Source: Solirubrobacterales bacterium (GTDB lineage: Bacteria; Actinomycetota; Thermoleophilia; Solirubrobacterales; Solirubrobacteraceae). From it: 34,347 nt of DNA. Below are positions 13,415 through 34,347 of this stretch, in pieces. The translations under genes and the position numbers were made by a program. The stretch lies in assembly GCA_027306855.1 (NCBI GenBank), contig DAHUYZ010000021.1, positions 1 to 34,347 on the forward strand, read 5' to 3'. Every line of letters starts with the position of its first letter. Position 1 is the stretch's first letter. The notes beneath the pieces are model-generated. The model was not told the DNA's origin. It did no database searches and saw only the letters and a program-made list of their open reading frames with translations.

Positions 13415-14716
13415 ATGACTGGAACGGGCGCCGACTGGGCCGAGCTTGCGCGACTCGACAGCCGGCACGTCTGGCACCCCTACGCGCCGCTGCCAACGGC
13501 CAATCCGTCGCTTCCCGTCGTCTCCGCGGAGGGTGTGCGGCTACGGCTTGCCGACGGGCGCGAGCTGATCGACGGCATGTCCTCGTGGTGGTGTGCGATC
13601 CACGGTTACCGGCATCCTGCCCTGGACGCGGCGGTACAGGGCCAGCTCGGGCGAATGGCGCACGTCATGTTCGGGGGGCTCACCCACGAGCCGGCGGTGC
13701 GACTCGCCGAGCGCCTCGTGGAGCTTGTGCCGGACGGGCTCGAGCACGTGTTCTTCGCCGACTCCGGATCTGTGTCGGTCGAGGTCGCGATCAAGATGGC
13801 GCTCCAGTACCAGCTTGCTATCGGGCATCCGCAGCGAACCTGCCTCTTGACCGTCCGCGGCGGCTATCACGGCGACACGTTCGGCGCGATGGCCGTCTGC
13901 GACCCGGTCGGCGGGATGCACGGCATGTTCGCCGGCGTGCTTTCCGAGCACGTCTTCGCGCCCCGCCCGCCCGACGGCTTCGACAGCGGCCTCGACGAGG
14001 AATGGGAGCGATGGGCGGCCGAGGTGCGCTCGCTTGCGGCCACTCACGCGGACGAGCTGGCGGCGGTGATCGTCGAGCCGGTCGTCCAGGGCGCGGGCGG
14101 GATGCGCTTTCACTCGCCCGCGTGCGTCGCCCTGCTGCGAGAAGTGTGCGACGAACACGGACTGCTGCTCATCCTCGACGAGATCGCGACTGGCTTCGGA
14201 CGAACGGGCGCGCTGTTCGCGTGCGAGCACGCGGGCGTCGTCCCGGACATCATGTGCATCGGCAAGGCTCTCACCGGCGGCTACATGACGCTTGCGGCGA
14301 CGCTCTGCACGTCAGGGGTCGCCCAGGCGATCTCTTATGGGGAGGGTGGGGCGCTGATGCACGGCCCCACCTACATGGCCAACCCACTCGCCTGCGTGAC
14401 CGCGCTCGCCTCGATCGATCTGCTCGCCGACGACGGCTGGCGCGGAAATGTCGCGCGTATCGAGTGCGGCCTGCGCGAGGGCCTTGCCCCAGTTCGCGAT
14501 CTGCCCGGCGTCGCCGACGTGCGCGTGCTTGGCGCGATCGGAGTCGTCCAGCTCGACCACCAAGTCGACGTCGCTGCAGCTACCGCCGCCGCCGTACAGC
14601 ATGGCGTGTGGCTGCGTCCCTTCCGCGACCTCATATACACGATGCCGCCGTACGTCATCGGTGACGACGACTTGGCACAGGTCGCCGGTGCGGTTATCGC
14701 GGCCGCAGACGATTGA
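13415..14716 (+). CDS. bioA: adenosylmethionine-8-amino-7-oxononanoate aminotransferase
   Basis: BioA converts KAPA to DAPA with SAM as amino donor. The 433-residue protein shows the BioA-specific [15 protein letters not shown] near the N-terminus (51-67), [12 protein letters not shown] (PLP-binding D255) and the Schiff-base lysine K284 in [21 protein letters not shown] in the C-terminal half is another class III aminotransferase block. It is transcribed towards the bioBFD cluster and its 3' end overlaps bioD by 23 bases, an arrangement that could cause transcriptional interference between the two halves of the same pathway. Confidence 0.96.
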
Positions 14717-15383
14717 GCAAGCGGTCCCCTGCGCGCGCCAATTTTGCGATGTCGGTACTCATGATCTCTTCGAGCGTGACTACTTCTGTCGCTCCGATTC
14801 GCGCGATCGTGTCGCGGTTGGAGCGCTCCATCTCTGACGGCACCGTCCGCCAGGGTGTGAGGACGACTGACGCAACAGTCAGACCGGCCGTGCGCGCTGC
14901 AGCGAGTGTGAGCAAGGTGTGATTGATTGTCCCAAGCCCCGGGCGGGCCGCGATCAGTAGCGGCAGACCCAGCTCGACGGCGAGATCGCGCACCGTGAAG
15001 TCGTCGGCCAACGGCACGAGCAGGCCTCCGACGCCCTCGATGATCAGCGTCCCCCCTCGATCGGCGGCTTGCCGGGCCGCGGCGCGGGCGTTCGCCACGA
15101 GCTCGCCCGGCTCGACGCGTCGGCCTGCCATCGCCGCCGCCAGATGCGGGGACACCGCCGGCCCGAAGCGCAGCGGCGCGACGTCGTTCGCGTTAATGCC
15201 CGCCGCGAGCGCGAGCAACTCGTGATCGGGCGGCCATTCGCCCGGAGGCTCGTCGAGGCCCGTGACGACGGGCTTGTGCGCGGTCACCGGCTCCCCCGCG
15301 GCCCTCATTGCGGCGAGCAGGGCGGCGCTTACGATCGTCTTGCCCGCCCCGGTGTCGGTTCCGGTTACGAACAGTCCGCGCAC
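14694..15383 (-). CDS. bioD: dethiobiotin synthetase
   Basis: BioD makes dethiobiotin from DAPA, CO2 and ATP. The 229-residue protein starts at GTG 15383 and carries the P-loop GTDTGAGKT (8-16), the substrate lysine and threonine in AHKPVVTG, and the [10 protein letters not shown] block that binds DAPA and metal. It is last in the bioB-bioF-bioD operon, 33 bases after bioF. I see no clear Shine-Dalgarno site in this gap, which suggests coupling to bioF translation. Confidence 0.95.
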
Positions 15384-15416
15384 GTCGTAGGTGCTACCGA
15401 GATGGGAGGGGCCAAG

Positions 15417-16757
15417 TTAGGCGGCGCGGGCGATGCACGTCTCGCGCTCCCCGTCGAACGGGGCGCTGCCGATCTCCCCGCGCTCACCGTCGAACGGGGC
15501 GCTACGAACATCGCGGGCAGCATGTGCGGGCCGAGGCTTGACCGAGGTGACAGCTGGGACTCGCCGGTGCGCCGGCTCCCCGATCTCGCGCGGGTCTAGC
15601 CCCACCTCGCGCGCCGCGGCCGCCAACGCCTTGGCGGCTACCTGCAGCTCGCTGGTGGTATGCGAGGCCATCGCCGCCAACCGCAGTCGTGCGCTGCCTA
15701 TAGGGACTGTCGGTGGCCGTATCGCCTGGGCGAACACGCCTCGCTCGAGCGCGGCCTGGCAGAGGCGTACCGCGTCCGAGTCGCCTCCTACGACGAGCGG
15801 CACGATGTGCATGTCGGTCTCTCGCACCGCGAAGCCCTCGTCCGCGAGAGCGCCCCGCAGCGTGCGGGCGGCTGCGTGTAGGCGACTCACCTTGTGGGGG
15901 CGCTCCTCGAGCAGCCCCAGAGCGGCGAGCGCACCGGCGACAGCGGGCGGTGGAGGGGCTGTCGAGAAGATCAACGAGCGAGCGGAGTTGACGAGATAGC
16001 GGACCATCTCCTCGTTTGCGCAGACATATCCGCCGTAAGAGCCGAGCGCCTTGCTGAGCGTGCCTACGATCACGTCCACCTCGCCCTCCAGGCCGGTGGC
16101 CGCCACGGCGCCGCGTCCGCCCTCGCCGAGCGCTCCGGTCGCGTGGGCCTCATCCACGATCACGCGCGCGTCGTGCTCGCGGGCGAGCTCGACTATCTCC
16201 TGCAGTGGGGCTACATCGCCATCCATCGAGAACACCGAGTCGGTCACGATCAGGCGCCTTCCTTCGCCTGCATGACGGCACAGCTTACGCTCGAGATGAT
16301 CCATGTCACGGTGGCGATAGACGACCACATCCGCGCGGGACGCACGGCACCCGTCGATGATCGACGCGTGGTTGAGCTCGTCGGAGAAGATCACGTCGCC
16401 CGGGCCCGCGAGCGTGCCGATAGCGCCGAGGTTGGCGAGGTAGCCCGACCCGAACAGCACGCACGCCTCGGTTCCCTCGAATTCGGCCAGTCGCTCCTCG
16501 AGGCGCCGATGGATCGTCATCGTACCCGACACGAGTCGCGAGGCGCCCGCGCCGACGCCCCAGCGCATCGCCGCATCCGCAGCGGCCTCGCGCACCTTCG
16601 GATGGTCGGCGAGGCCCAAATAATTGTTCGAGCAGAGCAGCAGCACCGGCTCGCCCTCGAGCAGCACGCGCGGGCCCTGGGGACCGGACACCATCCGCAG
16701 GCGCCGGTCCAGACCCAGCCGCTCGAGCTCCGCCAGACGTTCTTCGATGTCGCTCAT
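15417..16757 (-). CDS. bioF: 8-amino-7-oxononanoate synthase with C-terminal repeat extension
   Basis: BioF condenses pimeloyl-ACP/CoA with alanine to form KAPA. In the 446-residue protein, NNYLGLADHP, GSGYLANLGAI, DEAHATGALG (about 202-211) and K236 in GTLSKALGSYGG (PLP Schiff base) are all present. ATG 16757 follows GGAGAG about ten bases upstream and sits 25 bases after bioB; the open frame further upstream overlaps bioB. About 50 residues beyond the usual end (after about 391) form a basic, low-complexity tail containing SAPFDGER twice, encoded by two near-identical hairpin units. The tail is unlikely to be needed for catalysis. Confidence 0.95.
   Translation of the reverse strand: MSDIEERLAELERLGLDRRLRMVSGPQGPRVLLEGEPVLLLCSNNYLGLADHPKVREAAADAAMRWGVGAGASRLVSGTMTIHRRLEERLAEFEGTEACVLFGSGYLANLGAIGTLAGPGDVIFSDELNHASIIDGCRASRADVVVYRHRDMDHLERKLCRHAGEGRRLIVTDSVFSMDGDVAPLQEIVELAREHDARVIVDEAHATGALGEGGRGAVAATGLEGEVDVIVGTLSKALGSYGGYVCANEEMVRYLVNSARSLIFSTAPPPPAVAGALAALGLLEERPHKVSRLHAAARTLRGALADEGFAVRETDMHIVPLVVGGDSDAVRLCQAALERGVFAQAIRPPTVPIGSARLRLAAMASHTTSELQVAAKALAAAAREVGLDPREIGEPAHRRVPAVTSVKPRPAHAARDVRSAPFDGERGEIGSAPFDGERETCIARAA
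15444..15503. repeat. tandem 36-bp-spaced hairpin repeat in the end of bioF
   Basis: A 24-bp unit (15444-15467 and 15480-15503, one mismatch) is repeated at 36-bp spacing. Each copy holds an inverted repeat around CGA, perfect in the first copy (CCCCGT-CGA-ACGGGG). On the reverse strand the two copies encode SAPFDGER. It could be a small interspersed hairpin element captured by the gene. Confidence 0.7.
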
Positions 16758-16782
16758 GCAGCCGTCTCTCCGTTCTCGTCGA

Positions 16783-17967
16783 TCAATCGCCCCAGCCCGC
16801 CGGCACCGCGTTGCGCGCCCCGTCCGGTCGTGGGGGAACCGCACGCTTAGCTCGGAAGCGAAGCTGGGTCGAGGGGTCCCACAGCCGGATCTTCAGCTCG
16901 GCCGCCTGTGACTCGGGCGCCGGCTCTTCGTGCGAGCCGCCCAGCAGTCCGTCGATCACATCGGGCGTCTCACCGTCGAGCCACCCTGACCGATTGTCGG
17001 GTCTGGGGTTCGACCCGTTGTCGGGCTGGCGCGCGACGTTCAGTCCGAGCTCCTCGAACATGCCCCTGTCGAAGTCAGGCTCAGAGCCGAGTGTCGTCAG
17101 GAAGTTGCCCATCATCACGCCGTTCAATCCCGCCTTGACCGCCAGCGGCTGCAGCTCGCCAAGGTTCTCCACGCGTCCGCCGCACAGACGGAACAGCGCT
17201 TCCGGGAGGATCAGCCTAAAGATCGCGATCCACTTGACCGCCTCCCACGGGTCCATGTAGTCGCGATCGCCGAACTTTGTGCCCGGCCTGGGATTGAGCA
17301 GGTTGATCGGCACGCTCGTTGGGTTGATTGCGGCCAGCTCGAACGCCATCTCCACGCGCTGCTCTCTGCTCTCGCCGAGGTTGAGGATGCCTCCGACGCA
17401 CGTCTCCAGGCCAGCCTCCCTTACCGCCTGAATCGTGCGCAGCCGGCCCTCGTAGCGGACGGTCGTGGAGACTTCGTCGTAGTAGCCGGACGCCGTCTCC
17501 ACGTTGTGGTGCACGCGCTGGATGCCCACGTCCTTCAACGCCTTTGCGCGTGCGGGCGACATGTGCCCGATCGAGGCGCAGCGCTTCAGGTTCGTGTGCT
17601 CGGCGACGAGCTTCGCGCCCTCCAAGATCTTCTCGAAGTCGCGCTTTGAGAGGCCCTGGCCCTGCGTAACCATGCAGAAGCGATGAGCACCCGCCGCTTC
17701 GGCCGCGCGCGCATGCTCGAGGATCTGCTCCGGGTCCATCATCGCGTGCATCGGCGTTTCCGCGTCGGCGAAGCGCGACTGGGCGCAGAAGCCGCAGTCC
17801 TCGGCGCAGCCACCCGACTTGGCGTTCACGAGCGAGCAAAGGTCGGTCGAGTCGCCGAAACGCTCAACCCGCGTGTCCCATGCGCGCTGCACAAGCGCTT
17901 CGATCTCGGCGCGATCCTCGATCTGGCCGAACTCCAGCGCTTCCTCGCGCGTGATAAGGGACGGCAT
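16783..17967 (-). CDS. bioB: biotin synthase with C-terminal extension
   Basis: BioB inserts sulfur into dethiobiotin. The radical SAM motif is C54-xxx-C58-xx-C61 in GGCAEDCGFCAQS. The [2Fe-2S] ligands correspond to C98, C130, C190 and R260. YYDEVSTTVRYEGRLRTI and NLLNPRPGTKFGD are further BioB blocks. The 394-residue protein is about 80 residues longer than the core enzyme; residues from about 313 are polar, with a PDNGSN/PDNRSG repeat, and look unstructured. ATG 17967 has GGAGG seven bases upstream. It is the first gene of the bioB-bioF-bioD operon, with a 123-bp leader region separating it from the MMPL stop. Confidence 0.96.
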   Translation of the reverse strand: MPSLITREEALEFGQIEDRAEIEALVQRAWDTRVERFGDSTDLCSLVNAKSGGCAEDCGFCAQSRFADAETPMHAMMDPEQILEHARAAEAAGAHRFCMVTQGQGLSKRDFEKILEGAKLVAEHTNLKRCASIGHMSPARAKALKDVGIQRVHHNVETASGYYDEVSTTVRYEGRLRTIQAVREAGLETCVGGILNLGESREQRVEMAFELAAINPTSVPINLLNPRPGTKFGDRDYMDPWEAVKWIAIFRLILPEALFRLCGGRVENLGELQPLAVKAGLNGVMMGNFLTTLGSEPDFDRGMFEELGLNVARQPDNGSNPRPDNRSGWLDGETPDVIDGLLGGSHEEPAPESQAAELKIRLWDPSTQLRFRAKRAVPPRPDGARNAVPAGWGD

Positions 17968-23552: not shown

Positions 23553-25079
23553 ATGACGCCACTTGCGAGGAAGCAGCGCCCGCTATCTGAGGACTTCCCG
23601 CGACTCATAGACGGCGGCAACGCGCTCGACGTACGCGAGCTCGAGCGTCTGCGCGCACGTGCGCGGCGCTTCGCCGAGGAGCACGTCAGTCCCCGCGCGA
23701 TGGAGATCGACCGGCGCACCGACGAGGACCCATCATGGTTCGACTGGGATCTCGTGCGGGCAGGGGCCGAGCACGGGATGCTCAGCTTCTTGATCCCCAA
23801 GCCGGCCGGCGGCGGAGGCGGTCTCTCCACCGAGGCGGCGGTCGTGATGGAGGAGTTGTGCGCCGCCTGTCCGGGGATCGCCCTGATCTTCGGCGCGCAT
23901 GCGCTCGGAATATCCCCTCTTCTGCTCGGCGGGCCCTCTCAGTGGGACGGCGTCCTCTCCGAGCTCGTGTGCTCCGAACGCACCACCAGGCCACTGCTGA
24001 TGGCGTGTGCGATCACCGAGCCCGAAGCCGGGACCGACGTCGAGGACCCCGACCTCTTGGCGCGCGCGCGGATCACCAGCCATGCCCGGCGCGTGCCCGG
24101 CGGCTTTCGCCTGAGCGGCGCCAAGCGCTTCATCTCAAACGGCAGCGTCGCCCGCTGGATAACGCTCTTGATGCCGACGGATCCGCGCGATCCGGCACAC
24201 ACCTGGACCTGCTTCCTCGTGGACGCCAGCAGCGAGGGCTTCTCCGTGAACCGAGTCGAGCACAAGATGGGCCAGCGTGCCGCCCACGCCGCGGAATTGG
24301 CTCTAGATGAAGTGTTTGTCCCCGACGAGCGCGTCGTCAGCAGGGAGGGCGACGGAGCGGCCGCCACGATGATCGTGCTCGCCTGCTCACGTCCCCCTGT
24401 CGGGGCGATCGCCACGGGGATCGCTCGCGGGGCATACGAGCGGCTGCTTGTTTGGCTGGAGGAGGACCGTGCGGCAAAAGGCCTGCTCGAGCGCCAGCAC
24501 GTCCAACTCGTGCTCGCGAGCATGGAGGAGGAGATCCACCTCGCCCGCCAGGCCTACATGGACGCCGCCACCGAGCTCGATTACCGGGCGCTCGGCGGCG
24601 CGATGAGGCATCCCGCGGTACGGGCTCTCGGGCATGTGCCGGCCGGCATCCGAAAGCGCCGTTCCGTACGCGGGCTGCTCGCTTCTGATCGCATGCGGGA
24701 CACGACCATCTCGATCCTGCATCGCACAACGAGCGAGTCAGCCGTCACTCGCTCGGTCGCGCTCTCCTCAATGGCGAAGGCGCGTGGAGGCGACGTGGCG
24801 ATGCGCGTCACCGGTGCGGCCCTGGAGATCGTGGGGCTGCGCGGCGTGCGGATCAGGGCGGAACTGGAGAAGCTGTGGCGCGATGCCAAGCTGTGCCAGA
24901 TCTACGAGGGCACCAACCAGCTCAACCGCCTGGAGGTCTATCGCGGCCTGTGCCGGCGAGAGACGATCGCCTGCCTGCCTCCACTGCTTGCCCACCGCTC
25001 CGCCGTGCCGCCGCCGGACGCTGGAGTCGGCGGGAGCCGCGAAAAAATCCTCGCAGGTGAGAATGGAGGTCCGCGATGA
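23553..25079 (+). CDS. acyl-CoA dehydrogenase, catalytic-type subunit
   Basis: This 508-residue flavoenzyme shows the ACAD N-terminal helical domain (FAEEHVSPRAMEIDRR), the mid-domain FAD/substrate block ACAITEPEAGTDVEDPD, GAKRFISNGSVARW, and the C-terminal KLCQIYEGTNQLNRLEVYRG with the expected catalytic base E452. It is longer than a standard 380-400-residue ACAD because of an insertion before the last helices (about residues 340-390) and a C-terminal tail. Its stop overlaps the ATG of a second, smaller ACAD. In actinobacteria such adjacent pairs often form alpha2beta2 enzymes acting on bulky or sterol-derived acyl-CoAs. Confidence 0.88.
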   Translation: MTPLARKQRPLSEDFPRLIDGGNALDVRELERLRARARRFAEEHVSPRAMEIDRRTDEDPSWFDWDLVRAGAEHGMLSFLIPKPAGGGGGLSTEAAVVMEELCAACPGIALIFGAHALGISPLLLGGPSQWDGVLSELVCSERTTRPLLMACAITEPEAGTDVEDPDLLARARITSHARRVPGGFRLSGAKRFISNGSVARWITLLMPTDPRDPAHTWTCFLVDASSEGFSVNRVEHKMGQRAAHAAELALDEVFVPDERVVSREGDGAAATMIVLACSRPPVGAIATGIARGAYERLLVWLEEDRAAKGLLERQHVQLVLASMEEEIHLARQAYMDAATELDYRALGGAMRHPAVRALGHVPAGIRKRRSVRGLLASDRMRDTTISILHRTTSESAVTRSVALSSMAKARGGDVAMRVTGAALEIVGLRGVRIRAELEKLWRDAKLCQIYEGTNQLNRLEVYRGLCRRETIACLPPLLAHRSAVPPPDAGVGGSREKILAGENGGPR

Positions 25080-26203
25080 GCACGCAGACGACTACGAGCG
25101 GCGAGCGGGCGGCGCTGCTCGCTATGGCCCGCGATCTCGCGCGCCACGAGCTGCTAGCGCGCAGCGTGGATCTTGACCGGGGCGATCGCGAGGCGATCGC
25201 CGAGTGTTGGCGCAGCCTCGTAGGCGTCGGTCTCGACAGGGCGCTGCTCGGCGAACGGCACGGAGGCGTCGAGCTAAGCGTGCGCGACCTGCTCGCCGCA
25301 CTCGAGGAGCTCGCGGTCGGCGACGGTGGGATCGCGATGTGCGTGCTGCTCTGCAACACCGCTCTGGCGACACTCACAGACGAGCAGCTCAGCGAAATCC
25401 CCTGGGGAGCGCGCTGGGCGCTCGTGCCGGCCACGTCCGGTACGGAGGTGACCGTGTCGGACGGAGCGCTCGACGGTCGCATCGAATGCGCTCTCGGCGC
25501 TCTCGGCGCTCACGGACTCGTCGTCATCCTCGACGGACCCGAGCCGGCGGCGTTTGCGATCGACGCCGGCGCAGCCGGCTCGAGGCTCGAGCGTGACGTC
25601 ACGCAAATGGGATTGCGCGCGGCGCCCGCCGCGTTGATCGAGCTGGCAGACATCGACTGTCCGTGCCCTGCAGGGCGCGCGCCCGCTCTGGATGGGTCAG
25701 ACTGCTCCAACGGGATGATGAGCGCCGCGAACGCGCGGGCGCTGCTGCGCGCCGGCACCGCTGCGATCGCAAATGGGATCGCCCGGCGCGCGCACGAGAT
25801 GGCGCTCGAATACGCCCACGCCCGTCAGCAGGGAGGAGTCGCGATCATCGAGCACGACGCTGTCAGCGACATGCTGTCGGCGATGGCGGTGAGACTGGCA
25901 TGTAGGCCAGAAGTCGGCGCCGGGCGGTTTGGCTCCGACATGACCGCCGATCCGCTCGGCCTCGCCATCGATCAGAAGTACGCGCTCGCCGTAAAGATCG
26001 CCGCCACCGACGCCGCCGTCGCAACGACGACCGACGCAGTCCAGGTGTTCGGCGGGACCGGCTACATGGTCGAGACCGGCGTCGAGAAGTTGATGCGCGA
26101 CGCCAAGTACTGCCAGCTGTTCCCCGAGCCCAATTGGGTCGCGCACGACGAGCTGATGCGCTCAGAGCGCGCCGGTCTGCGTTCCGGCGAGCCCGAGCAG
26201 TAG
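25076..26203 (+). CDS. acyl-CoA dehydrogenase-like partner subunit
   Basis: The 375-residue protein starts in an ATGA overlap with the first ACAD. It retains the C-terminal block DAVQVFGGTGYMVETGVEKLMRDAKYCQLF, but the catalytic YEGT motif is replaced by FPEPNW. The mid-domain ITEPxxGSD flavin/substrate motif is also missing, where PATSGTEVTVSDG is found. I infer a non-catalytic or weakly catalytic partner of the preceding ACAD, as in mycobacterial heterotetrameric FadE pairs. The riboswitch of the next operon starts about 20 bases after its stop. Confidence 0.82.
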   Translation: MSTQTTTSGERAALLAMARDLARHELLARSVDLDRGDREAIAECWRSLVGVGLDRALLGERHGGVELSVRDLLAALEELAVGDGGIAMCVLLCNTALATLTDEQLSEIPWGARWALVPATSGTEVTVSDGALDGRIECALGALGAHGLVVILDGPEPAAFAIDAGAAGSRLERDVTQMGLRAAPAALIELADIDCPCPAGRAPALDGSDCSNGMMSAANARALLRAGTAAIANGIARRAHEMALEYAHARQQGGVAIIEHDAVSDMLSAMAVRLACRPEVGAGRFGSDMTADPLGLAIDQKYALAVKIAATDAAVATTTDAVQVFGGTGYMVETGVEKLMRDAKYCQLFPEPNWVAHDELMRSERAGLRSGEPEQ

Positions 26204-26221
26204 CATCCTGCGCGTACATAC

Positions 26222-26386
26222 GGTCGGTGGCGAAGGGAAGCCGGTGAGAGTCCGGCGCGGACCCGCCACTGTGACCGGGGATGCCGTCCGCAGCGCGCAA
26301 CCTGCGCGAAGCCACTGATCGCCGCGATCGCGGGACCGGGAAGGCGCGGAGGGTAGGCCCGGGAGCCAGGAGACCTGCCTCCGGCC
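26222..26386 (+). promoter_or_regulatory. cobalamin (B12) riboswitch aptamer
   Basis: The conserved core reads GGGAAGCCGGTGAGAGTCC then GGCGCGGACCCGCCACTGT. It is followed by ACCGGGAAGG and the B12 box AGCCAGGAGACCTGCC at 26364-26379. The closing P1 helix can be drawn between GGTCGG (26222-26227) and CCGGCC (26381-26386) with one G-U pair. The aptamer senses adenosyl- or methylcobalamin, and genes under such elements are nearly always for B12 synthesis, transport or B12-independent bypass. Here it precedes an uptake operon. Confidence 0.96.
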
Positions 26387-26390
26387 GGCA

Positions 26391-26421
26391 AGCCCACAAG
26401 CCCTCGTGGAAAGGGGTGGCT
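26391..26421 (+). promoter_or_regulatory. riboswitch expression platform: SD-sequestering hairpin
   Basis: AGCC-c-AC (26391-26397) can pair with GTGGCT (26416-26421), and inside it CCCT (26401-26404) pairs with AGGG (26412-26415). The GGGG at 26413-26416, the only Shine-Dalgarno candidate for ATG 26427, lies wholly in this stem. This fits translational repression by B12, with no terminator T-run visible. Confidence 0.6.
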
Positions 26422-26426
26422 CAATC

Positions 26427-27158
26427 ATGAAACGCATTACTCTCACCGCGGCCGGCGTCTGCGCCGTCGCTCTCTTGCCGGCAGTGGCGCCGTCAATCGC
26501 TGCGGCGAACCGAACCGGCTCCGCCGTTTCGATCCGGGTGGAGGGGATGAGCCGGACGCTCTTGCCCGAAACGGGGTTGAGCCCGCGCTCGAGCGAGATC
26601 GACAAGGATGGCAAGCCCACCGACACATGCGTCGGGGACACAGCGGCCGTAGCGCTGGAAGACGGCACTCACGGCCACTGGACCGCAGGCACATACTCCT
26701 CGGGCCTCGGCTACCCGGTGATAGGCATCGAGAAAGAGTCGTATCCGTTCACATCCGACTACTACTGGTCGCTGTGGATCGACGACAAGCCTGCGACCAC
26801 GGGCATCTGCGGCGCGACGCTCAAAGCCGGTGACAGCGTCCTGTTCTTCCCGCAGTGCTCCCAGGAAAGCGCGGCGAGCTGCCCGCAGGGTCTGTTCGAT
26901 CCCGCGGTTCTGCGGGTGAGCGGCCCCTCGCGCGCGCGCGAGGGCAAGAACGTCAAGGTCAAGGTCAGCTCGCTGGCCAACCTCACAGGCGCGCCGTCGC
27001 CCGGTGCGGGCGTCAAGCTGACGTTCGGCAAGCGATCGGTCAAGACCAACGCCGCCGGAGTGGCGCAAGTGCGCTTCGCCAAGGCCGGCAAGTACAAGAT
27101 CGTCGCTACCGCGCCCAACTCGATCCGCGCCGAGTTGACCGTGCAGGTGAGCGGCTAG
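26427..27158 (+). CDS. secreted transcobalamin-C-like (DUF4430) protein
   Basis: This 243-residue exported protein has a signal peptide (1-27, ending SIAAA). Residues about 33-145 form a DUF4430/transcobalamin-C-like beta domain, recognisable from VSIRVEGMSRTLLPETGL, the aromatic YPFTSDYYWSLWIDDKPA hairpin and ATLKAGDSVLFF; in human transcobalamin the equivalent domain covers one face of B12. Residues about 160-243 look like an Ig-type bacterial repeat (GAGVKLTFGKRSVKTNAAGV). Cysteines C68, C128, C144 and C152 could form two disulfides. ATG 26427 is preferred to GTG 26406, which lies inside the riboswitch hairpin. It is the first gene of the riboswitch operon. Confidence 0.85.
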   Translation: MKRITLTAAGVCAVALLPAVAPSIAAANRTGSAVSIRVEGMSRTLLPETGLSPRSSEIDKDGKPTDTCVGDTAAVALEDGTHGHWTAGTYSSGLGYPVIGIEKESYPFTSDYYWSLWIDDKPATTGICGATLKAGDSVLFFPQCSQESAASCPQGLFDPAVLRVSGPSRAREGKNVKVKVSSLANLTGAPSPGAGVKLTFGKRSVKTNAAGVAQVRFAKAGKYKIVATAPNSIRAELTVQVSG

Positions 27159-27162
27159 ACCG

Positions 27163-28089
27163 ATGCTGTTGCGGCGCACCCCGGCTCCGGCGGTCGCGCT
27201 CGCGGCGCTGTGCGCGCTCGCAAGCTGCGGCCTCGGGCCGGGTGCCGCGCCGAAAGACGCCCAGCTCACGGTCACACGCGACTTTGGGACGCGCGTCGTG
27301 CTTGCAACGCGCGCTCCGAAAGTGGTAGGCCAGGAAACGATCATGAGCCTGCTGGCGCGCAACGCGCGCGTAAAGACCCGCTACGGAGGAGGGTTCGTGC
27401 AGTCGATCGACGGTCTGTCCGGCGGCAGCCAGGCAGGTGAGCCGATCGACTGGTTCTACTACGTCAACGGCGTCGAGGCGCCCGTGGGCGCGGCCAACAC
27501 GAACGTTCACAGCGGCGACCGCGTCTGGTGGGACCTGCACGATTGGAGCCAAACGGAGGACGTGCCGGCGGTGGTCGGCTCGTTTCCAGAGCCGTTCCTA
27601 CACGGCAACCAAGGCAAGCAGGTCGGCGTCGAATGTGCGCAGCCGTCGTCCTCGGCCTGCAAGTCGGTCGCTTCTCGTTTGCGCGCGCTGGGCGTCCCGG
27701 TCGTACTCGAGGCGCTCTCCGGCAAGGGGGAAGTGCGAGAGCTGCGCGTCCTCGTCGGCCCGCTCGCATCGATCGAGGCCAACCCAAATGCCCGGCTCGT
27801 CGGGCAGGGTCCGACTCATAGCGGCGTCTACGCCCGCTTCCCCTCCGACGGTCGCACGATTGCGCTGCTCGACGAGCGCGGTCGGACGGTGCGCACGCTC
27901 GGCGCCGGCGCCGGCCTGATCGCCGCTGCGCACAACGGCGAACAGGCTCCGGTCTGGCTCGTAACCGGCACCAACGCCGCCGGCGTCCAGCTGGCCGCCT
28001 CACGGCTGGATGAAGCTTCGCTGAAAGATCGCTTCGCGCTCGCCCTCTCCCCGAACAAAGAAGAGCTCGCGTTGCCGGCCGGAGGATGA
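27163..28089 (+). CDS. lipoprotein with transcobalamin-C-like (DUF4430) domain
   Basis: The 308-residue protein has a lipobox (LASC, C22), so it should be anchored on the outer face of the membrane. Residues about 35-130 form a second DUF4430-type domain, with MSLLARNARVKTRYGGGFVQ, DWFYYVNGVEAPVGA and VHSGDRVWWDLHDW. Residues about 133-300 form a further domain of unknown type containing a possible C-C pair (VECAQPSSSAC). It begins four bases after the first DUF4430 gene, and GGAGG just before its stop serves the TTG start of ecfT. A role as membrane-bound substrate receptor is inferred. Confidence 0.85.
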   Translation: MLLRRTPAPAVALAALCALASCGLGPGAAPKDAQLTVTRDFGTRVVLATRAPKVVGQETIMSLLARNARVKTRYGGGFVQSIDGLSGGSQAGEPIDWFYYVNGVEAPVGAANTNVHSGDRVWWDLHDWSQTEDVPAVVGSFPEPFLHGNQGKQVGVECAQPSSSACKSVASRLRALGVPVVLEALSGKGEVRELRVLVGPLASIEANPNARLVGQGPTHSGVYARFPSDGRTIALLDERGRTVRTLGAGAGLIAAAHNGEQAPVWLVTGTNAAGVQLAASRLDEASLKDRFALALSPNKEELALPAGG

Positions 28090-28093
28090 GCGC

Positions 28094-29017
28094 TTGAGGA
28101 GCATGCTGTTCTACCGACGCCTGCCTAGCCCTTTGCATGCGACGCGTGCGACGATCGGGGCGGCATGGGCGACCGCGCTGATAGTCGCTGCGCTGAGCAC
28201 CGATCATCCCGTCGTGCTCGGCGTACTCTGCGTCTGCACGCTGCTCGCCGGGATTGGTGCCGCAGTTGGCGCAGAGCTGGCACGCTCGCTTCGGATGGCG
28301 GCGATCGTCGCCGTTCCGATCGTGCTCGGCAACCTGCTCGTCTCGCGCGATGGTCTCACCGTGTTCGCGCGTCTCGGCGATCTCGGCCCGTTCGGGCAAG
28401 GTGATTTGACGGTCGAGGCGCTCGTCTACGGAGCGGTCATCGCGCTCAAGGTCAGCGTAGTGATGCTTGCGACCACGCTTGCGAGTCTCGCCGTCGATCC
28501 CGATGAGCTGCTGCTGATCGCACGCCGATTCTCGTTTCGCACCTCACTCACCGTGTCGCTCGCGACGCGCATGGTCCCCGTGCTCGGGCGCGACGCCCAG
28601 CGCCTTGCCGAGGCACAGCGCACGCGTGGGGACTGGATCGGGGCGCAGACCGGAAGAAGAGACGCTCGCTTTAGCGTCCGCCGCGCGCGCACGCGAGCCC
28701 GGCTGATCAGCGCGATAGTCGGCTCCTCGCTGGACCGGGCGCTCGATGTGGCGGCGACGCTCGAGCTCCGCGGCTTCGCGTCCGCCCGGCGCGCGCCGCG
28801 ACGGCGTGAGCCATGGTCGCGCCACGATCTCGCGTTCACGGCATCGGCCTTTGCGATCATCGCGCTTGCCCTGCTCGATCGCGCCCTTGTGCTCGCGCCG
28901 TTCAACGCGTATCCACTGGTGAGGATGAGCGCTGGGCCACCCGCGCTGGCGCTGTGCGTCGCGCTTGGCGTGGCTGCGCTCGCGCCGTTTGCCGATCGCC
29001 GAGGCATAAGACGATGA
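28094..29017 (+). CDS. ecfT: ECF transporter T component (EcfT/CbiQ-like)
   Basis: This 307-residue membrane protein couples ATP hydrolysis to the S component. N-terminal TMs are followed by coupling-helix motifs of the Ala-Arg-Gly type, here seen as AEAQRTRGDW and AATLELRGFAS, flanking the cytoplasmic region. TTG 28094 has GGAGG (28081-28085) eight bases upstream; ATG 28103 is the alternative. The stop forms an ATGA overlap with the fused ATPase gene. It is longer than many EcfT proteins because of a C-terminal TM pair. Confidence 0.9.
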   Translation: MRSMLFYRRLPSPLHATRATIGAAWATALIVAALSTDHPVVLGVLCVCTLLAGIGAAVGAELARSLRMAAIVAVPIVLGNLLVSRDGLTVFARLGDLGPFGQGDLTVEALVYGAVIALKVSVVMLATTLASLAVDPDELLLIARRFSFRTSLTVSLATRMVPVLGRDAQRLAEAQRTRGDWIGAQTGRRDARFSVRRARTRARLISAIVGSSLDRALDVAATLELRGFASARRAPRRREPWSRHDLAFTASAFAIIALALLDRALVLAPFNAYPLVRMSAGPPALALCVALGVAALAPFADRRGIRR

Positions 29018-30813
29018 GCGGGATCGTCTTCGAGCGTGTCACCTACACATATCCAGGCGCGGCCGAGCCCGCACTGCGCGACGTCACGCTCGAAGTGCGT
29101 CCCGGTGAACTGTGTCTGCTCGCCGGTCTCTCTGGGCACGGTAAGTCGACTCTGCTGCGCGCTACTTGCGGCCTTGCGCCCCATTTTCACGGCGGAACGT
29201 TCGCTGGGCGTGTGACCGTCTGCGGGCTCGATACGCGCGAACACCCTCCCGCTCGTCTGGGCACGCACGTCGGCGTCCTCTTCCAGGATCCGGAGACCCA
29301 GCTCGTGATGGGGTCTGTTCGGGCTGAGCTCGCGCTTTCTCTGGAGAGCCGCTCCGGCAGTGCAGCTGCAGTCGCGCGCGGCGTGGAGGAGGTGGCGCTT
29401 GCGCTCGGCATCGACCATCTCCTGGACCGCTCCACCCACGAGCTCTCCGGCGGGGAGCAGCAGCGCGTGGCGCTCGCCGCGGCGCTCGCCGGCCGCCCGC
29501 GGGTGGTGCTGCTGGATGAGCCGACCTCTCAGCTGGACCCAGTCGCGGGCGATGAGCTGATAGGGCTGCTGCGCCGGCTCAACCAGGAGTGGGACACGAC
29601 GATCGTGCTGTCTGAGCACCGTCTGGAGCGTTGCCTCCCGACGGCCGACCGCGTGATCTGCCTGCACGACGGCGGCGTTGCATACGACGGTGATCCGGCC
29701 TCGTTCCTCTCGTTCGCAAACCAGTCTGCCCCCGCACTTCAGACACCCGGCGCGCGGCTGTTCGCGCTCGCGGGCCTTCGTCAGGCGCCGGTCGGCGTCA
29801 AGCAGGCGCGTGGCGCGTTGCGTCGCCGGGGACTGCTACCGCACGAGAACGACCCCACAGAGTGTGCGCCCGCAGACGGGCCAGACTCGGGGCAGCGTGG
29901 ACACAGGGGCGGTCGGGGCGCTGGTCTTCGCGTTCGCCTGCGAGGTCGCAGTGTGTCGGCGGCCGTCGGAGTGCACGGTCTGTGGTTCGAGGTCGATCGT
30001 GGACCCGCGATCCTGCGTGGAGTCGAGCTTACCGTCGAGCCCGGTGAGAGCGTCGTGTTGATGGGCCGCAACGGCGCCGGCAAGTCGACGCTGCTGCGCC
30101 ACATGGCGGGCTTGATGACGCCGACGCGCGGGCGCATCGAGCGGGCCGGCCGTGTCGCCCTGCTGCTACAGAACCCCGGCGACTACATACTCCACGAGCG
30201 CGTCGCCGACGAGCTTTCTGCGGCGGCGCTACGCACTGCCGGTCTGCAGGAGCTCGCTGAGCGCAATCCGCGCGACCTATCGGGCGGCGAGCGTCAGCGT
30301 CTGGCGCTCGCGATTGTCGCCGGCGAGGGTGAGCCTCCGGCGCTGCTCGCATTGGACGAGCCGACGCGTGGGATGGATCGCGAGGCTAAGACGGCGCTCT
30401 GTGCCGAGCTGTGCCGCCGCGCATCGGAGGGACAAGGCGTGATCGTTGCGACTCACGACCCCGAGTTCGCGGCGAGCTGCGCGGAGCGTGCGGTGCTGCT
30501 TGCCGACGGGCGCGTGATTGCCGATGGGCCGGCCGCCGAGCTGCTCGCCGGCGGCTGGTACTTCGCGACCGAGACGGCCCGCATACTGGGGGGCGCCGGC
30601 GGGGCGCTGCTGCCCGAGCAGGGAGCGCTGCTGATCGAGCGGGCTATGCGCGCAAAAGGGTCTGCCGACGATTGGACGGGGAGCGGCCCGATTGATGGAG
30701 GTCAGGCAGATGGTGCCTCAGCGGACCGCGATCCCGCGAACGAGGTGTCGTCCGCTGCCCCTCTATCGGGTCGGCTGAGCGCTTCAGTCGCGGCCGCGGA
30801 GGCCCAACGGTGA
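29014..30813 (+). CDS. fused ECF double ATPase (EcfA-EcfA')
   Basis: This 599-residue protein joins two ABC ATPase domains in one chain. The first (about 1-250) has Walker A GLSGHGKST (38-46), signature LSGGEQQRVALAAAL and Walker B VVLLDEPTSQLD. The second (about 315-545) has Walker A GRNGAGKST (351-359), signature LSGGERQRLALAIV and Walker B LLALDEPTRGMD. A basic, Gly/Arg-rich linker of about 65 residues joins them and the C-terminus is polar. In most ECF systems these are separate EcfA1 and EcfA2 subunits. ATG 29014 overlaps ecfT; the stop overlaps the GTG of the S-component gene. Confidence 0.93.
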   Translation: MSGIVFERVTYTYPGAAEPALRDVTLEVRPGELCLLAGLSGHGKSTLLRATCGLAPHFHGGTFAGRVTVCGLDTREHPPARLGTHVGVLFQDPETQLVMGSVRAELALSLESRSGSAAAVARGVEEVALALGIDHLLDRSTHELSGGEQQRVALAAALAGRPRVVLLDEPTSQLDPVAGDELIGLLRRLNQEWDTTIVLSEHRLERCLPTADRVICLHDGGVAYDGDPASFLSFANQSAPALQTPGARLFALAGLRQAPVGVKQARGALRRRGLLPHENDPTECAPADGPDSGQRGHRGGRGAGLRVRLRGRSVSAAVGVHGLWFEVDRGPAILRGVELTVEPGESVVLMGRNGAGKSTLLRHMAGLMTPTRGRIERAGRVALLLQNPGDYILHERVADELSAAALRTAGLQELAERNPRDLSGGERQRLALAIVAGEGEPPALLALDEPTRGMDREAKTALCAELCRRASEGQGVIVATHDPEFAASCAERAVLLADGRVIADGPAAELLAGGWYFATETARILGGAGGALLPEQGALLIERAMRAKGSADDWTGSGPIDGGQADGASADRDPANEVSSAAPLSGRLSASVAAAEAQR

Positions 30814-32381
30814 GTTGGCCGCTTGCCTCGTTTGCGATTGTGTTCGCCGTGCTCGTCGTCGGCTGGATCGCCTACGAGCGCTCGCGTCCCTCGGCCCTGA
30901 TGATCGCCATCGTCGGCACGCTCTCGGCGATCGCGGCGCTCGGCAGGGACGCTTTCGTGGCGTTGCCGGACGTAAAGCCCATCACTGCGATGACGCTCGT
31001 CGTCGGTTACGCGCTAGGGCCGCTACCCGGCTTCACCGTCGGCGCAATCGGGATGCTCGCGTCAAACATAGTTCTCGGCCAAGGGCCGTATACACCGTGG
31101 CAGATGGCCGCCTGGGGGCTCGTCGGGCTCTTCGGCGCAACGCTCGGTCGCGCCTACGGGCAGCGGCGAGCTGGGCGCCTGACGCTTGCTCTCGCCTGCG
31201 CGCTCAGCGCGCTGGTGGCCAAGGAGATCATGAACGTCTATGAGTGGACCGTCTCGGCCAACAACACGCTCCCTGCGCTTGCTCTCACGGTCGGCAAGGG
31301 CGTCCCGTTCGACGTGACCGACACTGTCGCAAGCTTCCTGTTCGGACTCGCGTTCGGCCCCGAGCTCGCTCGCCTGCTCGGCCGGATGCGCGCGCGTATG
31401 ACGGTCACCTGGGAGTCGGTCGCTACGCCGCTTGCATTGTTGCTCGCCTTGGCGGTCATGGTGGCAGGCTCGTTCACGTGGGCGGTGCCGAGCGCTCGCG
31501 CGGGCGGTGGCGGTGCCTCCTCAGCCGGTGTGTTCGCGCGCACGATCGGCTACCTGCGCTCCGCCCAGAACAGCGATGGAGGCTTCGGCGCGGGGCGCGG
31601 ACAGCGCACCAGCGAGCTGTACTCGGCGTGGGCCGCGATCGGCCTTGCGGCCGCCGGCATCGACCCGCTGTCGCTGCGGCGCGACGGCCATACGGTTCTC
31701 GAAGCGATCCGTCGCGAAGCTGCGACGCTCAGCGGCGCAGGCGATTTCGAGCGCACGATCCTCGCGCTGCGTGCCTGCCGCGCCTCGACCCGCGCCTTCC
31801 CGGGCGGCGACCTACTCGCTCGACTTCTCCGCTACCGCTCGAATGACGGCTCGGTTGGCCGGCTCGTCAACATCACCTCGTTCGCGATCTTCGCTCTGCG
31901 CGCGACGGGACGATCGGCTTCTGACCCGTTCGTTCGCAGCGCCGCGATCTGGCTCGAGCGCCAGCAGAACGCGGACGGGAGCTTCAGCTTTGCCACCCGG
32001 GGCGCCGCGGGCGACGTCGACGATACGGCCGCCGCGCTGCAGGCTCTAGTAGACGCCGGTCAGCGCACGAGCCGCGGTGTCGCGCGCGCTGCCGCCTATC
32101 TGGTGCGTGCACAGAATCTCGACGGCGGCTATCCCCAGCAGCTCGGTGGGCCGTCCAACGCCCAGTCCACCGCGTGGGCGATTCAGGGACTGGCAGCAGC
32201 GGGACGCGACGTGCGTGCGGTCAGGCGCGGCCGAGGTCGCTCGCCGCTCGAATACCTGCAAGCGCTGGTAGCGCCCAACGGCAGTGTCCAGTACACCTGG
32301 ACCAGCGCGCAGACTCCCGTCTGGGTTACGGCGCAGGCGCTTACCGCGTTCGCGCAACGACCATTTCCGATCGTGCCGTAG
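30810..32381 (+). CDS. ECF S component fused to alpha/alpha-toroid (transcobalamin alpha-like) domain
   Basis: This 523-residue protein starts with GTG in a GTGA overlap. Residues about 1-195 are a typical ECF S component with about six TMs (MTLVVGYALGPLPGFTVGAI, QGPYTPWQMAAWGLVGL). An extra TM (about 205-225) leads to an extracellular region of alpha/alpha-toroid repeats: SAQNSDGGFG (251-260), ERQQNADGSFSF (383-394), RAQNLDGGYPQQ (433-444) and a final APNGSVQY. Such QxxDG repeats occur in prenyltransferase/squalene-cyclase toroids and in the alpha domain of intrinsic factor and transcobalamin. The riboswitch and upstream DUF4430 genes point to a corrinoid as substrate. The 3' end overlaps cgoX by 41 bases. 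Confidence 0.88.
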   Translation: MSWPLASFAIVFAVLVVGWIAYERSRPSALMIAIVGTLSAIAALGRDAFVALPDVKPITAMTLVVGYALGPLPGFTVGAIGMLASNIVLGQGPYTPWQMAAWGLVGLFGATLGRAYGQRRAGRLTLALACALSALVAKEIMNVYEWTVSANNTLPALALTVGKGVPFDVTDTVASFLFGLAFGPELARLLGRMRARMTVTWESVATPLALLLALAVMVAGSFTWAVPSARAGGGGASSAGVFARTIGYLRSAQNSDGGFGAGRGQRTSELYSAWAAIGLAAAGIDPLSLRRDGHTVLEAIRREAATLSGAGDFERTILALRACRASTRAFPGGDLLARLLRYRSNDGSVGRLVNITSFAIFALRATGRSASDPFVRSAAIWLERQQNADGSFSFATRGAAGDVDDTAAALQALVDAGQRTSRGVARAAAYLVRAQNLDGGYPQQLGGPSNAQSTAWAIQGLAAAGRDVRAVRRGRGRSPLEYLQALVAPNGSVQYTWTSAQTPVWVTAQALTAFAQRPFPIVP

Positions 32382-33807
32382 CGCCCAGCACCCGCTCGGC
32401 GGCGGCTCGGCCCTGCGCGATGCACTGCGGCACGCCCATGCCGCGGTACGCCGCGCCCGCAAGCGCGATCCGAGGGAAGGGCTCGAGGTGGCGCTCTATG
32501 CGCCCGATGCGCTCGAGATGGCCTGGCTCGTAGTGGGGCAGCGCATCGTTCCAGCGCGTCACATGCACGCTGCGCGGCGCGCCGACCAAGCCGGCAACCT
32601 CGCGCAGGTCGCGAACGAGACGATCGGTCAGCTGCGCGTCATCCATGCCGATCGCCCGATCGACGCTTGCGCGCGCCACCGAGCAGCGCAGCCACAGCTC
32701 GCCGCCGGTTGACAGGTGAGGCCACTTGTTCGACAGCAGCGTGCACCCCCCGAGTAGGCGCCGCTCGCGATGTGGGACGAGCAGACCCGATCCGCGTAGC
32801 GGTCGCGAGGCGGCGTCGACGGGGTAGGAGATCGTTGCGATCACCGCCGAGAGGTAGGCAATCTCCGCCAGCTCCATCGCCGCCTGCGGAGCGACGGCGC
32901 TCAAGATGTCGGCGGCCTCGAACGCCGGCGCAGCGATCACGACGCCGTCTGCCGCAAGCCGCTCACCGTTCGCGAGACCGACCGCATAGCGGTCCTGCGG
33001 GATGCGTACGAGCAGCCGTGCGCGCGTCCCGCGGCGAATGCCGAGCAGCTCGGTCTCCCGCAGCCGATAGTCGAGCCGCTCGACGATGCGCTCGAGACCT
33101 TCCGGCAGCGTCGCGAACGGAGGGGCCTGCGGCTGTGCGTAGCGCGTGGTTGGCTGTGCGCCGGCGCGTGCGGTTTGAGCCCTCGCGGCGAGCATGCCCT
33201 TGATGAGGCTGCGGTGCTCGCGCGCGATCGCCTCCAGCTGAGGCGCGGTCGCCCGCAGGCTCAGGCCGTCGCAGCCGGTGCCGTAGATCGTTCCGAGCAG
33301 CGGGTCCACGAGCCGATCGAGCGCTTGACGCCCCAGTCGCCCGCCGATCAGCTCGGCGACCGAACGATCTTGGTGCGTCGAGAAGGCAGGAAACAGCAGA
33401 TCGAGCGACGCTCGCGCGACGCCCCAGGGCGAGAGGATGCCCGAGCGCAGCAAGGGCCCCGCGCCATCCGGCAGGCCGCCGAGGATGCCGGGCGGCAACT
33501 CGCGCAGCCGTCCGCGCGCCCACACACTGGTCGCCATCGTGGCCGGTGCCATCAGCTCGCCATCCAAGTCCAGCTCGCGGCAGAGCTCGATCGCCGCCGG
33601 GATGCGCGTGAGCAGCGACTCGGCGCCCACGTCGATCATGCGCCCATCGATCGGCTCGCTACGGATCTTCCCGCCGAGACGCTCGCCGGCCTCCAGCAAC
33701 GTCACTCGCGGCTGCTGCGGATGCTCTTGCGATCGCGTCAGCGCGTGCGCGCAGGCGAGGCCTGCGATCCCTCCGCCGATCACCACGATGTGGGGACGCT
33801 CACTCAT
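32341..33807 (-). CDS. hemY: coproporphyrinogen III / protoporphyrinogen oxidase (HemY/CgoX)
   Basis: This 488-residue FAD enzyme begins with the Rossmann motif VVIGGGIAGLACA and shows EAGERLGGKIRSE, DVGAESLLTR, DPLLGTIYGTGCDGLSLRA and the C-terminal FAD block IALAGAAYRGMGVPQCI. In Gram-positive bacteria this enzyme oxidises coproporphyrinogen III (CgoX) just before iron insertion by ferrochelatase, the gene found directly upstream. ATG 33807 overlaps the ferrochelatase stop by eight bases, indicating coupling; the longer open frame upstream lies inside that gene. The symbol cgoX is preferred by some for this branch. Confidence 0.93.
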   Translation of the reverse strand: MSERPHIVVIGGGIAGLACAHALTRSQEHPQQPRVTLLEAGERLGGKIRSEPIDGRMIDVGAESLLTRIPAAIELCRELDLDGELMAPATMATSVWARGRLRELPPGILGGLPDGAGPLLRSGILSPWGVARASLDLLFPAFSTHQDRSVAELIGGRLGRQALDRLVDPLLGTIYGTGCDGLSLRATAPQLEAIAREHRSLIKGMLAARAQTARAGAQPTTRYAQPQAPPFATLPEGLERIVERLDYRLRETELLGIRRGTRARLLVRIPQDRYAVGLANGERLAADGVVIAAPAFEAADILSAVAPQAAMELAEIAYLSAVIATISYPVDAASRPLRGSGLLVPHRERRLLGGCTLLSNKWPHLSTGGELWLRCSVARASVDRAIGMDDAQLTDRLVRDLREVAGLVGAPRSVHVTRWNDALPHYEPGHLERIGRIERHLEPFPRIALAGAAYRGMGVPQCIAQGRAAAERVLGATARSEMVVARTR

Positions 33808-34347
33808 AGGACGTGCGGTCCGGCGACTCACAGCGATCGAGCACGATCTCGGCGAGCGCATCCAAGAACGCCGGGTCGGCATTGGGCGAGGTCGTTCGCT
33901 CAAACGCAAGCCCAACCCTAGAGGCGAGTGCGCGGCATTCGACGTCGAGGTCGTAGAGGATCTCCAGATGGTCGGCGGTGAAGCCCGCCGGGCACACGAT
34001 CACGCCCGGAACGGCGGCCGTGGCGCGCTCGCGGATCACCTGTGTGATGTCGGGGCCGATCCACTCATCGACGGTCCGACCGGCGCTCTGCCAGGCCACC
34101 GACCAGCGCGTAAGCCCGGCGCTTGCCGCGACGGCTGCGGCCGTCTCGCGGAGCTGCAGCGGATAGGGGTCGCCGCTCGAGAGGATGCGCACGGGGAGGC
34201 TGTGCGCGGTGAAGACCACCTCGGCGTGCCGGGCGGCGAAGGCCTTGCCGGCTGCGGAGGATCCGGCCTGCGCGAGCAGCGGCCGGCCCTGCGGGCTGCG
34301 GAAGATGTTCAGCGGCCCGCGCACCCGGTAGTGCGTGCCCTCGTGAT
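33800..34347 (-). CDS. hemH: ferrochelatase (coproporphyrin type), 5' end outside the window
   Basis: About 180 C-terminal residues are present and the frame stays open to the window edge, so the N-terminal part lies beyond 34347. The catalytic histidine motif VVFTAHSLPVRIL, the SAGRTVDEWIGPDI block and the metal-side VCPAGFTADHLEILYDLDVE with its conserved Glu identify ferrochelatase. In actinobacteria it inserts iron into coproporphyrin III (CpfC). It overlaps the oxidase gene, forming a cpfC-cgoX unit. A GTG at 34324 in this frame is internal, not the start. Confidence 0.92.
   Translation of the reverse strand, partial: HEGTHYRVRGPLNIFRSPQGRPLLAQAGSSAAGKAFAARHAEVVFTAHSLPVRILSSGDPYPLQLRETAAAVAASAGLTRWSVAWQSAGRTVDEWIGPDITQVIRERATAAVPGVIVCPAGFTADHLEILYDLDVECRALASRVGLAFERTTSPNADPAFLDALAEIVLDRCESPDRTSYE

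What the first reader, a model, noticed from the sequence alone, without database searches (positions are those of the whole stretch)
26222..32381. Split, membrane-tethered transcobalamin-like B12 capture system fused to an ECF importer
A cobalamin riboswitch leads five coupled genes: two exported DUF4430/transcobalamin-C-like proteins, EcfT, a single-chain double ATPase, and an S component whose C-terminal half is an extracellular alpha/alpha toroid with QxxDG repeats. Human intrinsic factor and transcobalamin combine exactly these two folds in one chain and hold B12 between them. Here the alpha part is covalently attached to the transporter while two beta parts are separate, one free and one lipid-anchored. 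This suggests a substrate is clamped between toroid and beta domain directly above the S component. The individual families are known; the combined arrangement as a working capture-and-import machine is, as far as I know, not described.
Basis: partly seen in the sequence, partly recalled or inferred. Interest (0 to 1): 0.92.

Follow-up and report, generated by a model that had tools for sequence, protein, structure and literature searches.

The report
Bacterial B12 importer with transcobalamin-like captors
An uncultured actinobacterium carries a vitamin-B12-controlled importer with outer parts of which one resembles half of the human B12-carrier proteins, hinting that bacteria and animals may grip the vitamin in a similar way.

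Summary
A cobalamin riboswitch (26211-26396) heads five tightly packed genes: two exported DUF4430-type proteins (one weak), EcfT, a double ATPase, and an S component fused to an outer alpha/alpha toroid. The S profile finds ECF-CbrT (6FNP), a proven B12 importer, at E 6.7e-23; the next S component scores 1.9. The 92% complete MAG has one such riboswitch and B12-dependent enzymes, but no corrin-ring methylases, CobS or BtuC-like permease were found. B12 import is very likely. The lipoprotein's N-terminal domain is DUF4430, the family of the transcobalamin C-terminal part, and its model matches that beta domain. The toroid is nearest to terpene cyclases; a specific likeness to the transcobalamin alpha domain was not seen. 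So the two-fold claim is half shown. The gene set is conserved in relatives, with the toroid often a separate exported protein. CbrTUV and an [quoted passage not shown] are already named in Lactobacillus papers. New, as far as ten open-library searches show, are the toroid partner, its fusion to S and the transcobalamin reading. Clamping of B12 above S is a good, untested model.

The parts
26211..26396 (+). Cobalamin riboswitch (RF00174), the only RF00174 match in the own MAG
26427..27158 (+). D1: exported protein (signal peptide by eye), weak DUF4430 match (residues 109-140, below cut-off) and a weak carboxypeptidase-regulatory/Ig-like C-terminal match (below cut-off); possible second beta domain
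27163..28089 (+). D2: lipoprotein; N-terminal DUF4430/transcobalamin-beta-like domain (about residues 34-127) and a conserved C-terminal domain without clear relative (about 150-308)
28094..29017 (+). EcfT transmembrane coupling protein (CbiQ family)
29014..30813 (+). Double EcfA ATPase in one chain (two complete motif sets)
30810..31412 (+). CbrT-like S component (residues 1-201 of the fusion)
   Evidence: (6fnp_A E 6.7e-23)
31413..31520 (+). Further hydrophobic helix and linker (residues about 202-237), partly low model confidence, with a signal-peptidase-like A-x-A
31521..32378 (+). Alpha/alpha toroid, twelve helices (residues 238-523; ten-residue pLDDT means of 93 or more from 241 to 520); outside the membrane by inference from exported relatives

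Best explanation
This is a dedicated vitamin B12 (cobamide) importer of the ECF type. What the sequence shows: behind a cobalamin riboswitch lie, in one packed operon, a CbrT-like S component with its own EcfT and double ATPase, and three outer parts: a DUF4430 lipoprotein (D2), a weaker DUF4430-type protein (D1), and an alpha/alpha toroid made in one chain with S. What is inferred: the riboswitch lets the operon be expressed when B12 is scarce. The lipid-anchored beta domain of D2 and the toroid together take up one cobamide outside the membrane, in the way that the two domains of transcobalamin close on B12, and pass it to the S component below; S then topples and joins EcfT and the ATPases, which drive release inside. 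The toroid is brought into place by the S component and either stays tethered or is cut free by signal peptidase at the A-x-A after its membrane helix.
For: S profile matches ECF-CbrT 6fnp_A at E 6.7e-23 over 26-201; next S component (folate) 1.9. CbrT binds and transports cobalamin and cobinamide (PMC5997447, passages). Riboswitch before the operon in 28 of 30 relatives scanned; the two misses (L056, L057) are contigs cut inside the operon. The own MAG has MetH-, mutase- and small B12-binding-type genes (names read from sequence) and PduO, but of TP methylases only a CobA/HemD-type and an RsmI-like one, no CobS, and a single FecCD hit that reads as ZnuB-like. D2 model (pLDDT 91.1): Foldseek lists 3u7z (a bacterial protein), then transcobalamin beta 5np4 (TMt 0.62) and 5no0 (0.64), TC:CD320, haptocorrin, intrinsic factor. 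Of 18 class genomes tested both ways, 10 have S/toroid and DUF4430, 8 neither. Loci picked by DUF4430 outside the class: 12 of 15 hold the CbrT-like S, 7 the toroid. L195 has, in one chain before a DUF4430 protein, T, AA and S, two DUF4430-like repeats (by eye; Pfam lists none) and a toroid (profile only, 1e-10). A Lactobacillus plasmid has T, AA, S, an exported 350 aa protein and a DUF4430 protein in a row. Conserved polar or aromatic toroid residues gather at inner-helix starts: 8 of 13 against 32 of 128, p 0.0035.
Against: Nothing was measured. The toroid's nearest relatives are terpene cyclases, not transcobalamin. The D2 fold matches are modest (only 2 of 1051 at E 0.001 or less), and cellulose synthase BcsB and an alpha-glucuronidase appear at E-values like those of transcobalamin; by sequence the D2 profile finds no transcobalamin in the PDB. 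CbrT of L. delbrueckii binds B12 at nanomolar Kd without captors. D2 and toroid were not folded together. Two loci (L052, L054) show no toroid. No B12 riboswitch was found in 3 of 10 more distant loci (L191, L195, L202) nor in the Lactobacillus plasmid locus. The Lactobacillus toroid assignment rests on motifs and on sharing 15 of the 36 best-kept letters; Pfam gives that protein nothing. Most loci were found with the S-toroid query, which favours that pairing.
Confidence: 0.62

Rival explanations
1. B12 importer in which S, EcfT and the ATPases do the work and the outer proteins serve another role, for example stabilising S, reaching through the wall, or choosing between cobamides; the toroid does not bind B12.
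For: CbrT alone binds cobalamin at nM Kd. The toroid is nearest to terpene cyclases. G127 and G130 keep D1-D2-T-AA-S and only an S match was found in their genomes.
Against: The toroid is fused to S in 66 of 80 loci (found with an S-toroid query) and is the next gene in others; it is also found in 7 of 15 loci picked by DUF4430; its conserved polar residues gather at inner-helix starts.
Confidence: 0.25
2. The toroid is an exported enzyme related to class II terpene cyclases that acts on a lipid, and sits in the operon for another reason.
For: Best sequence and fold matches are squalene-hopene cyclases and drimenyl diphosphate synthase; the window copy reads DVDD at 402-405.
Against: DxDD is kept in only 30 of 64 fused sequences; within that stretch only Asp404 and Thr406 are invariant, and Asp404 is kept in 61% of 18 split toroids. 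Relatives export it and it stands behind a B12 riboswitch.
Confidence: 0.06
3. The importer takes a precursor or another substrate (cobinamide, cobalt, a lower-ligand base) rather than a complete cobamide.
For: CbrT also takes cobinamide. EcfT is of the CbiQ family.
Against: No CobS and no ring methylases were found in the MAG, so it could hardly finish a cobamide from cobinamide or cobalt, unless the genes lie in the missing part (92% complete).
Confidence: 0.07

Closest known systems
ECF-CbrT of Lactobacillus delbrueckii (PDB 6FNP; PMC5997447, passages seen)
   Same: S component of the same family (E 6.7e-23); EcfT and two ATPase domains; B12 as likely substrate.
   Different: There one ECF module serves several S components (passage); the words accessory, auxiliary and lipoprotein and DUF4430 (listing) do not occur in that paper.
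CbrTUV cobalamin ECF transporter and its additional lipoprotein component (PMC6722938 and PMC9963975, passages seen)
   Same: T, double ATPase, S and a DUF4430 protein in one row on L. plantarum pMF1298-5, named CbrV, CbrU, CbrT there; a lipoprotein so labelled stands in a proteome table.
   Different: S is not fused to a toroid; the 350 aa exported neighbour is annotated fucose-binding lectin II; no riboswitch found at that locus.
Human transcobalamin, intrinsic factor, haptocorrin
   Same: Beta domain: DUF4430 and fold match of D2. The alpha part is also a six-hairpin barrel (recalled).
   Different: Alpha and beta lie in one chain there; no specific match of the toroid to the alpha domain was seen; no importer attached.
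NCBIfam SCO2321 family membrane protein (NF053823)
   Same: Best named family of the toroid, E 5.7e-27; also hit by 5 of 5 toroids from other operons.
   Different: All scores are far below the family cut-off (at most 100.7 of 300 bits).

Membership tests
ECF transporter with its own energising module | EcfT, two EcfA domains with full motifs, S component in one operon | tested here: met
CbrT (cobalamin) S components | Specific sequence relation to CbrT over the whole S core | tested here: met
   6fnp_A E 6.7e-23 over 26-201, next S component 1.9
CbrT (cobalamin) S components | Transport of cobalamin | not testable with these tools
   indirect only: riboswitch and gene content
Transcobalamin/intrinsic factor | Beta domain (DUF4430 / transcobalamin C-terminal fold) | tested here: met
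   D2: Pfam 3e-15; model against 5np4, 7qbe, 4kki, 2pmv, at E 0.0015-0.0077. D1: below cut-off
Transcobalamin/intrinsic factor | Alpha domain, six-hairpin barrel specifically like TCN2/GIF | tested here: inconclusive
   Helical toroid modelled at high confidence, best matches terpene cyclases; TCN2 not in the 50 listed of 445; second aligner not available
Transcobalamin/intrinsic factor | Pfam PF01122 sequence family | tested here: not met
   0 of 9 genomes or records at E 10; also not listed for the window protein at E 1
Transcobalamin/intrinsic factor | Alpha and beta domains in one chain | tested here: not met
   Separate chains in the window. L195 may have both in one chain: toroid by profile, DUF4430-like repeats by eye
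Class II terpene cyclase | Conserved DxDD acid motif | tested here: not met
   30 of 64, window copy included

The most novel reading that the evidence does not exclude
A two-part bacterial intrinsic factor built onto an importer: the lipid-anchored beta domain closes B12 against a toroid that is part of, or delivered by, the S component, and the pair is an older form of the animal transcobalamin design.
Probability: 0.35. Interest if true: 0.85.

Novelty: new variant of a known kind. Interest (0 to 1): 0.64.

Why it matters
In ECF transporters the S component itself is taken as the substrate binder (PMC5997447, passage). A conserved set of outer captors around a B12 S component, in Actinomycetota and in Lactobacillus, would add to that picture, give DUF4430 proteins and SCO2321-type toroids a function, and offer a bacterial counterpart for the origin of intrinsic factor and transcobalamin. 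It would also explain how such bacteria, with B12-dependent enzymes but no corrin synthesis found, obtain the vitamin.

Tried and rejected
Terpene cyclase activity was set low because DxDD is kept in 30 of 64. Cobalt transport was set low because the S part is CbrT-like. BtuCDF as a rival uptake route: the one FecCD hit stands among a Fur-like gene, a second permease and an ATPase and reads as ZnuB-like. Other known B12 routes (BtuM, BacA-type) and B12-independent methionine synthase were not searched for. Of riboswitch families only RF00174 was sought in the whole MAG.

Searches for a sequence link between toroid and transcobalamin alpha gave nothing. The D2 profile found no transcobalamin by sequence. 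The two Lactobacillus proteins found no meaningful PDB relative. D1 alone found no PDB sequence. The plasmid search with D2 gave no match. The claim that the arrangement is not in print rests on ten searches of one open library, which lacks most subscription papers; Rodionov et al. 2009 is recalled, not read. Other passages looked at without use: PMC2667541, PMC9306216, PMC7478625, PMC10117117 (no passage).

A-x-A after the last helix: 58 of 64 within 15 residues against 42.4 expected from shuffles of the same Ala-rich tails; within 24 residues 60 of 63 against 52.2. Suggestive, not proof.
Full report
What is there. The packing (two gaps of 4 bases, two overlaps of 4) points to one transcript.

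Whose genome. The window lies in an unnamed 2.23 Mb MAG, 92% complete. Two same-family genomes (G111, G139) have contigs as long as those of Conexibacter records (L110, L113), so the family is probably that of Conexibacter (inference).

Substrate. A profile of 64 S-toroid proteins (A2: window plus 63 loci; of 80 loci I left out 6 short ones and 11 of the remaining 74 did not translate cleanly) finds 6fnp_A at E 6.7e-23 over the S core, and the next S component, for folate, at 1.9. 6FNP is ECF-CbrT of L. delbrueckii, shown to bind and import cobalamin and cobinamide (PMC5997447, passages only); that chain A is its S component I infer from its length (182) and the match. The own MAG has one RF00174 match, here; three B12-binding domains, in MetH-like, mutase-like (MeaB-like gene beside it) and small B12-binding proteins (names read from sequence); PduO; no CobS; two TP methylases, a CobA/HemD-type and an RsmI-like one; and one FecCD hit that reads as ZnuB-like. 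It thus seems to depend on imported, complete cobamide. The MAG is incomplete, so absences are not certain.

Conservation of the set. In 40 regions of unnamed class genomes D2 is found in 36; the four without (L032, L051, L056, L057) are cut by contig ends. In 80 named loci D2 is found in 62, always as D2-T-AA-S, and the other 18 start inside the operon near a contig end. These loci were found with S-toroid queries, so the S-toroid link is favoured by the choice; the D2, T and AA links are not. S and toroid are one gene in 66 of 80. In other families of the class the toroid is mostly the next gene; in ten separate toroid proteins printed, export signals are seen by eye and 4 have a tail helix. 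In L053 and L055 the toroid lies before D2, in L053 behind a D1-like gene. L052 and L054 show no toroid. A cobalamin riboswitch is present in 28 of 30 loci scanned. In the phylum 35 of 198 genomes have DUF4430, 25 of them outside the class; of 15 of these 25 that I fetched, 12 have the CbrT-like S and 7 the toroid in the region; of 10 of these 15 scanned, 6 have RF00174, 1 AdoCbl-II and 3 neither. For 18 class genomes tested both ways, 10 have S/toroid and DUF4430, 8 neither, none is discordant; relatedness is not corrected for.

The transcobalamin reading. D2 is DUF4430; transcobalamins carry DUF4430 at the C terminus (PMC4350170, one passage). D2 was modelled with 57 sequences (pLDDT 91.1). 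Foldseek lists first a Ruminococcus protein (3u7z, E 7e-4), then human transcobalamin beta with and without cobalamin (5np4 TMt 0.62, 5no0 0.64), TC:CD320, haptocorrin and intrinsic factor at E 0.0015 to 0.017; BcsB and an alpha-glucuronidase stand among them at like E-values but with low TM-scores for their own length. S-toroid was modelled with 64 sequences (pLDDT 89.8; residues 199-207 and 220-235 below 50). Its fold matches are squalene-hopene cyclases (8pak TMt 0.63), drimenyl diphosphate synthase and prenyltransferases; transcobalamin is not among the 50 shown of 445, and the second aligner was not available. PF01122 hits nothing in 9 genomes or records at E 10. So the beta half is supported and the alpha half only by fold class. 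L195 seems to hold two DUF4430-like repeats (by eye; Pfam lists none there), a toroid (profile hit 1e-10, not seen by Pfam) and a tail helix in one chain, followed by a DUF4430 protein, T, AA and S, which would argue that these parts act together.

Where the toroid sits and what it keeps. Split relatives export it (by eye), so it should lie outside. In the fusion one more hydrophobic helix follows the S core, with an A-x-A within 15 residues in 58 of 64 (42.4 expected by shuffling), so release by signal peptidase is possible. Over 64 fused and 18 split toroids, 13 of the 36 best-kept positions are polar or aromatic; 8 lie at starts of inner helices, 0 at starts of outer ones (background 32 and 26 of 128; p 0.0035). 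Inner and outer were assigned by alternation from the helix list, not from coordinates. DxDD is kept in 30 of 64.

What is known. CbrV, CbrU and CbrT are named on L. plantarum pMF1298-5 (PMC6722938, passage); that locus holds T, double ATPase, S, an exported 350 aa protein and a DUF4430 protein. I read the 350 aa protein as a toroid from motifs, and it shares 15 of the 36 best-kept toroid letters, but Pfam finds nothing in it. A proteome paper lists an [quoted passage not shown] and mentions a DUF4430 protein next to rtpR (PMC9963975, passages); whether they are one protein I did not check. The original prediction (Rodionov et al. 2009) is recalled. Ten searches of the open library showed me no account of the toroid or of the transcobalamin likeness in these operons.

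Verdict. A real and conserved B12 importer with likely captors, a new variant of the CbrTUV kind. My estimates: B12 import 0.93; joint capture by D2 and toroid 0.6; a lasting tether 0.55.

Noticed in passing
L053:13311-13753 and L053:13780-16080 (+); L055:13418-13806: Two cobalamin riboswitches back to back on opposite strands; in L053 the second leads another exported protein with a weak toroid match and a collagen-like stretch, apart from the transporter. It might be a free B12 binder.
   Followed up: partly
L189:4833-9446, L190:6910-12426, L191:2514-8171: Very large proteins (about 1540-1890 aa, stop to stop) with two or three DUF4430 domains and propeller-like matches just before DUF4430, ATPase and S genes; in L189 an AdoCbl-II riboswitch lies at the start.
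   Followed up: partly
L195:7342-9666 (-): One chain with two DUF4430-like repeats (by eye), a toroid by profile and a tail helix: a possible natural join of the parts in the order beta-beta-alpha.
   Followed up: partly
window 27610-28089: The C-terminal domain of D2 (two cysteines kept in 52 of 57 each) has a confident model but no clear fold relative in the list; it may be a docking domain.
   Followed up: no
window 13415-17967: A bioA, bioD, bioF, bioB-like biotin cluster on both strands (read from ORFs).
   Followed up: no
window 23553-26203 and 32341-33915: Two acyl-CoA-dehydrogenase-like genes directly before the riboswitch and a protoporphyrinogen-oxidase-like gene facing the operon downstream (read from ORFs).
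   Followed up: no
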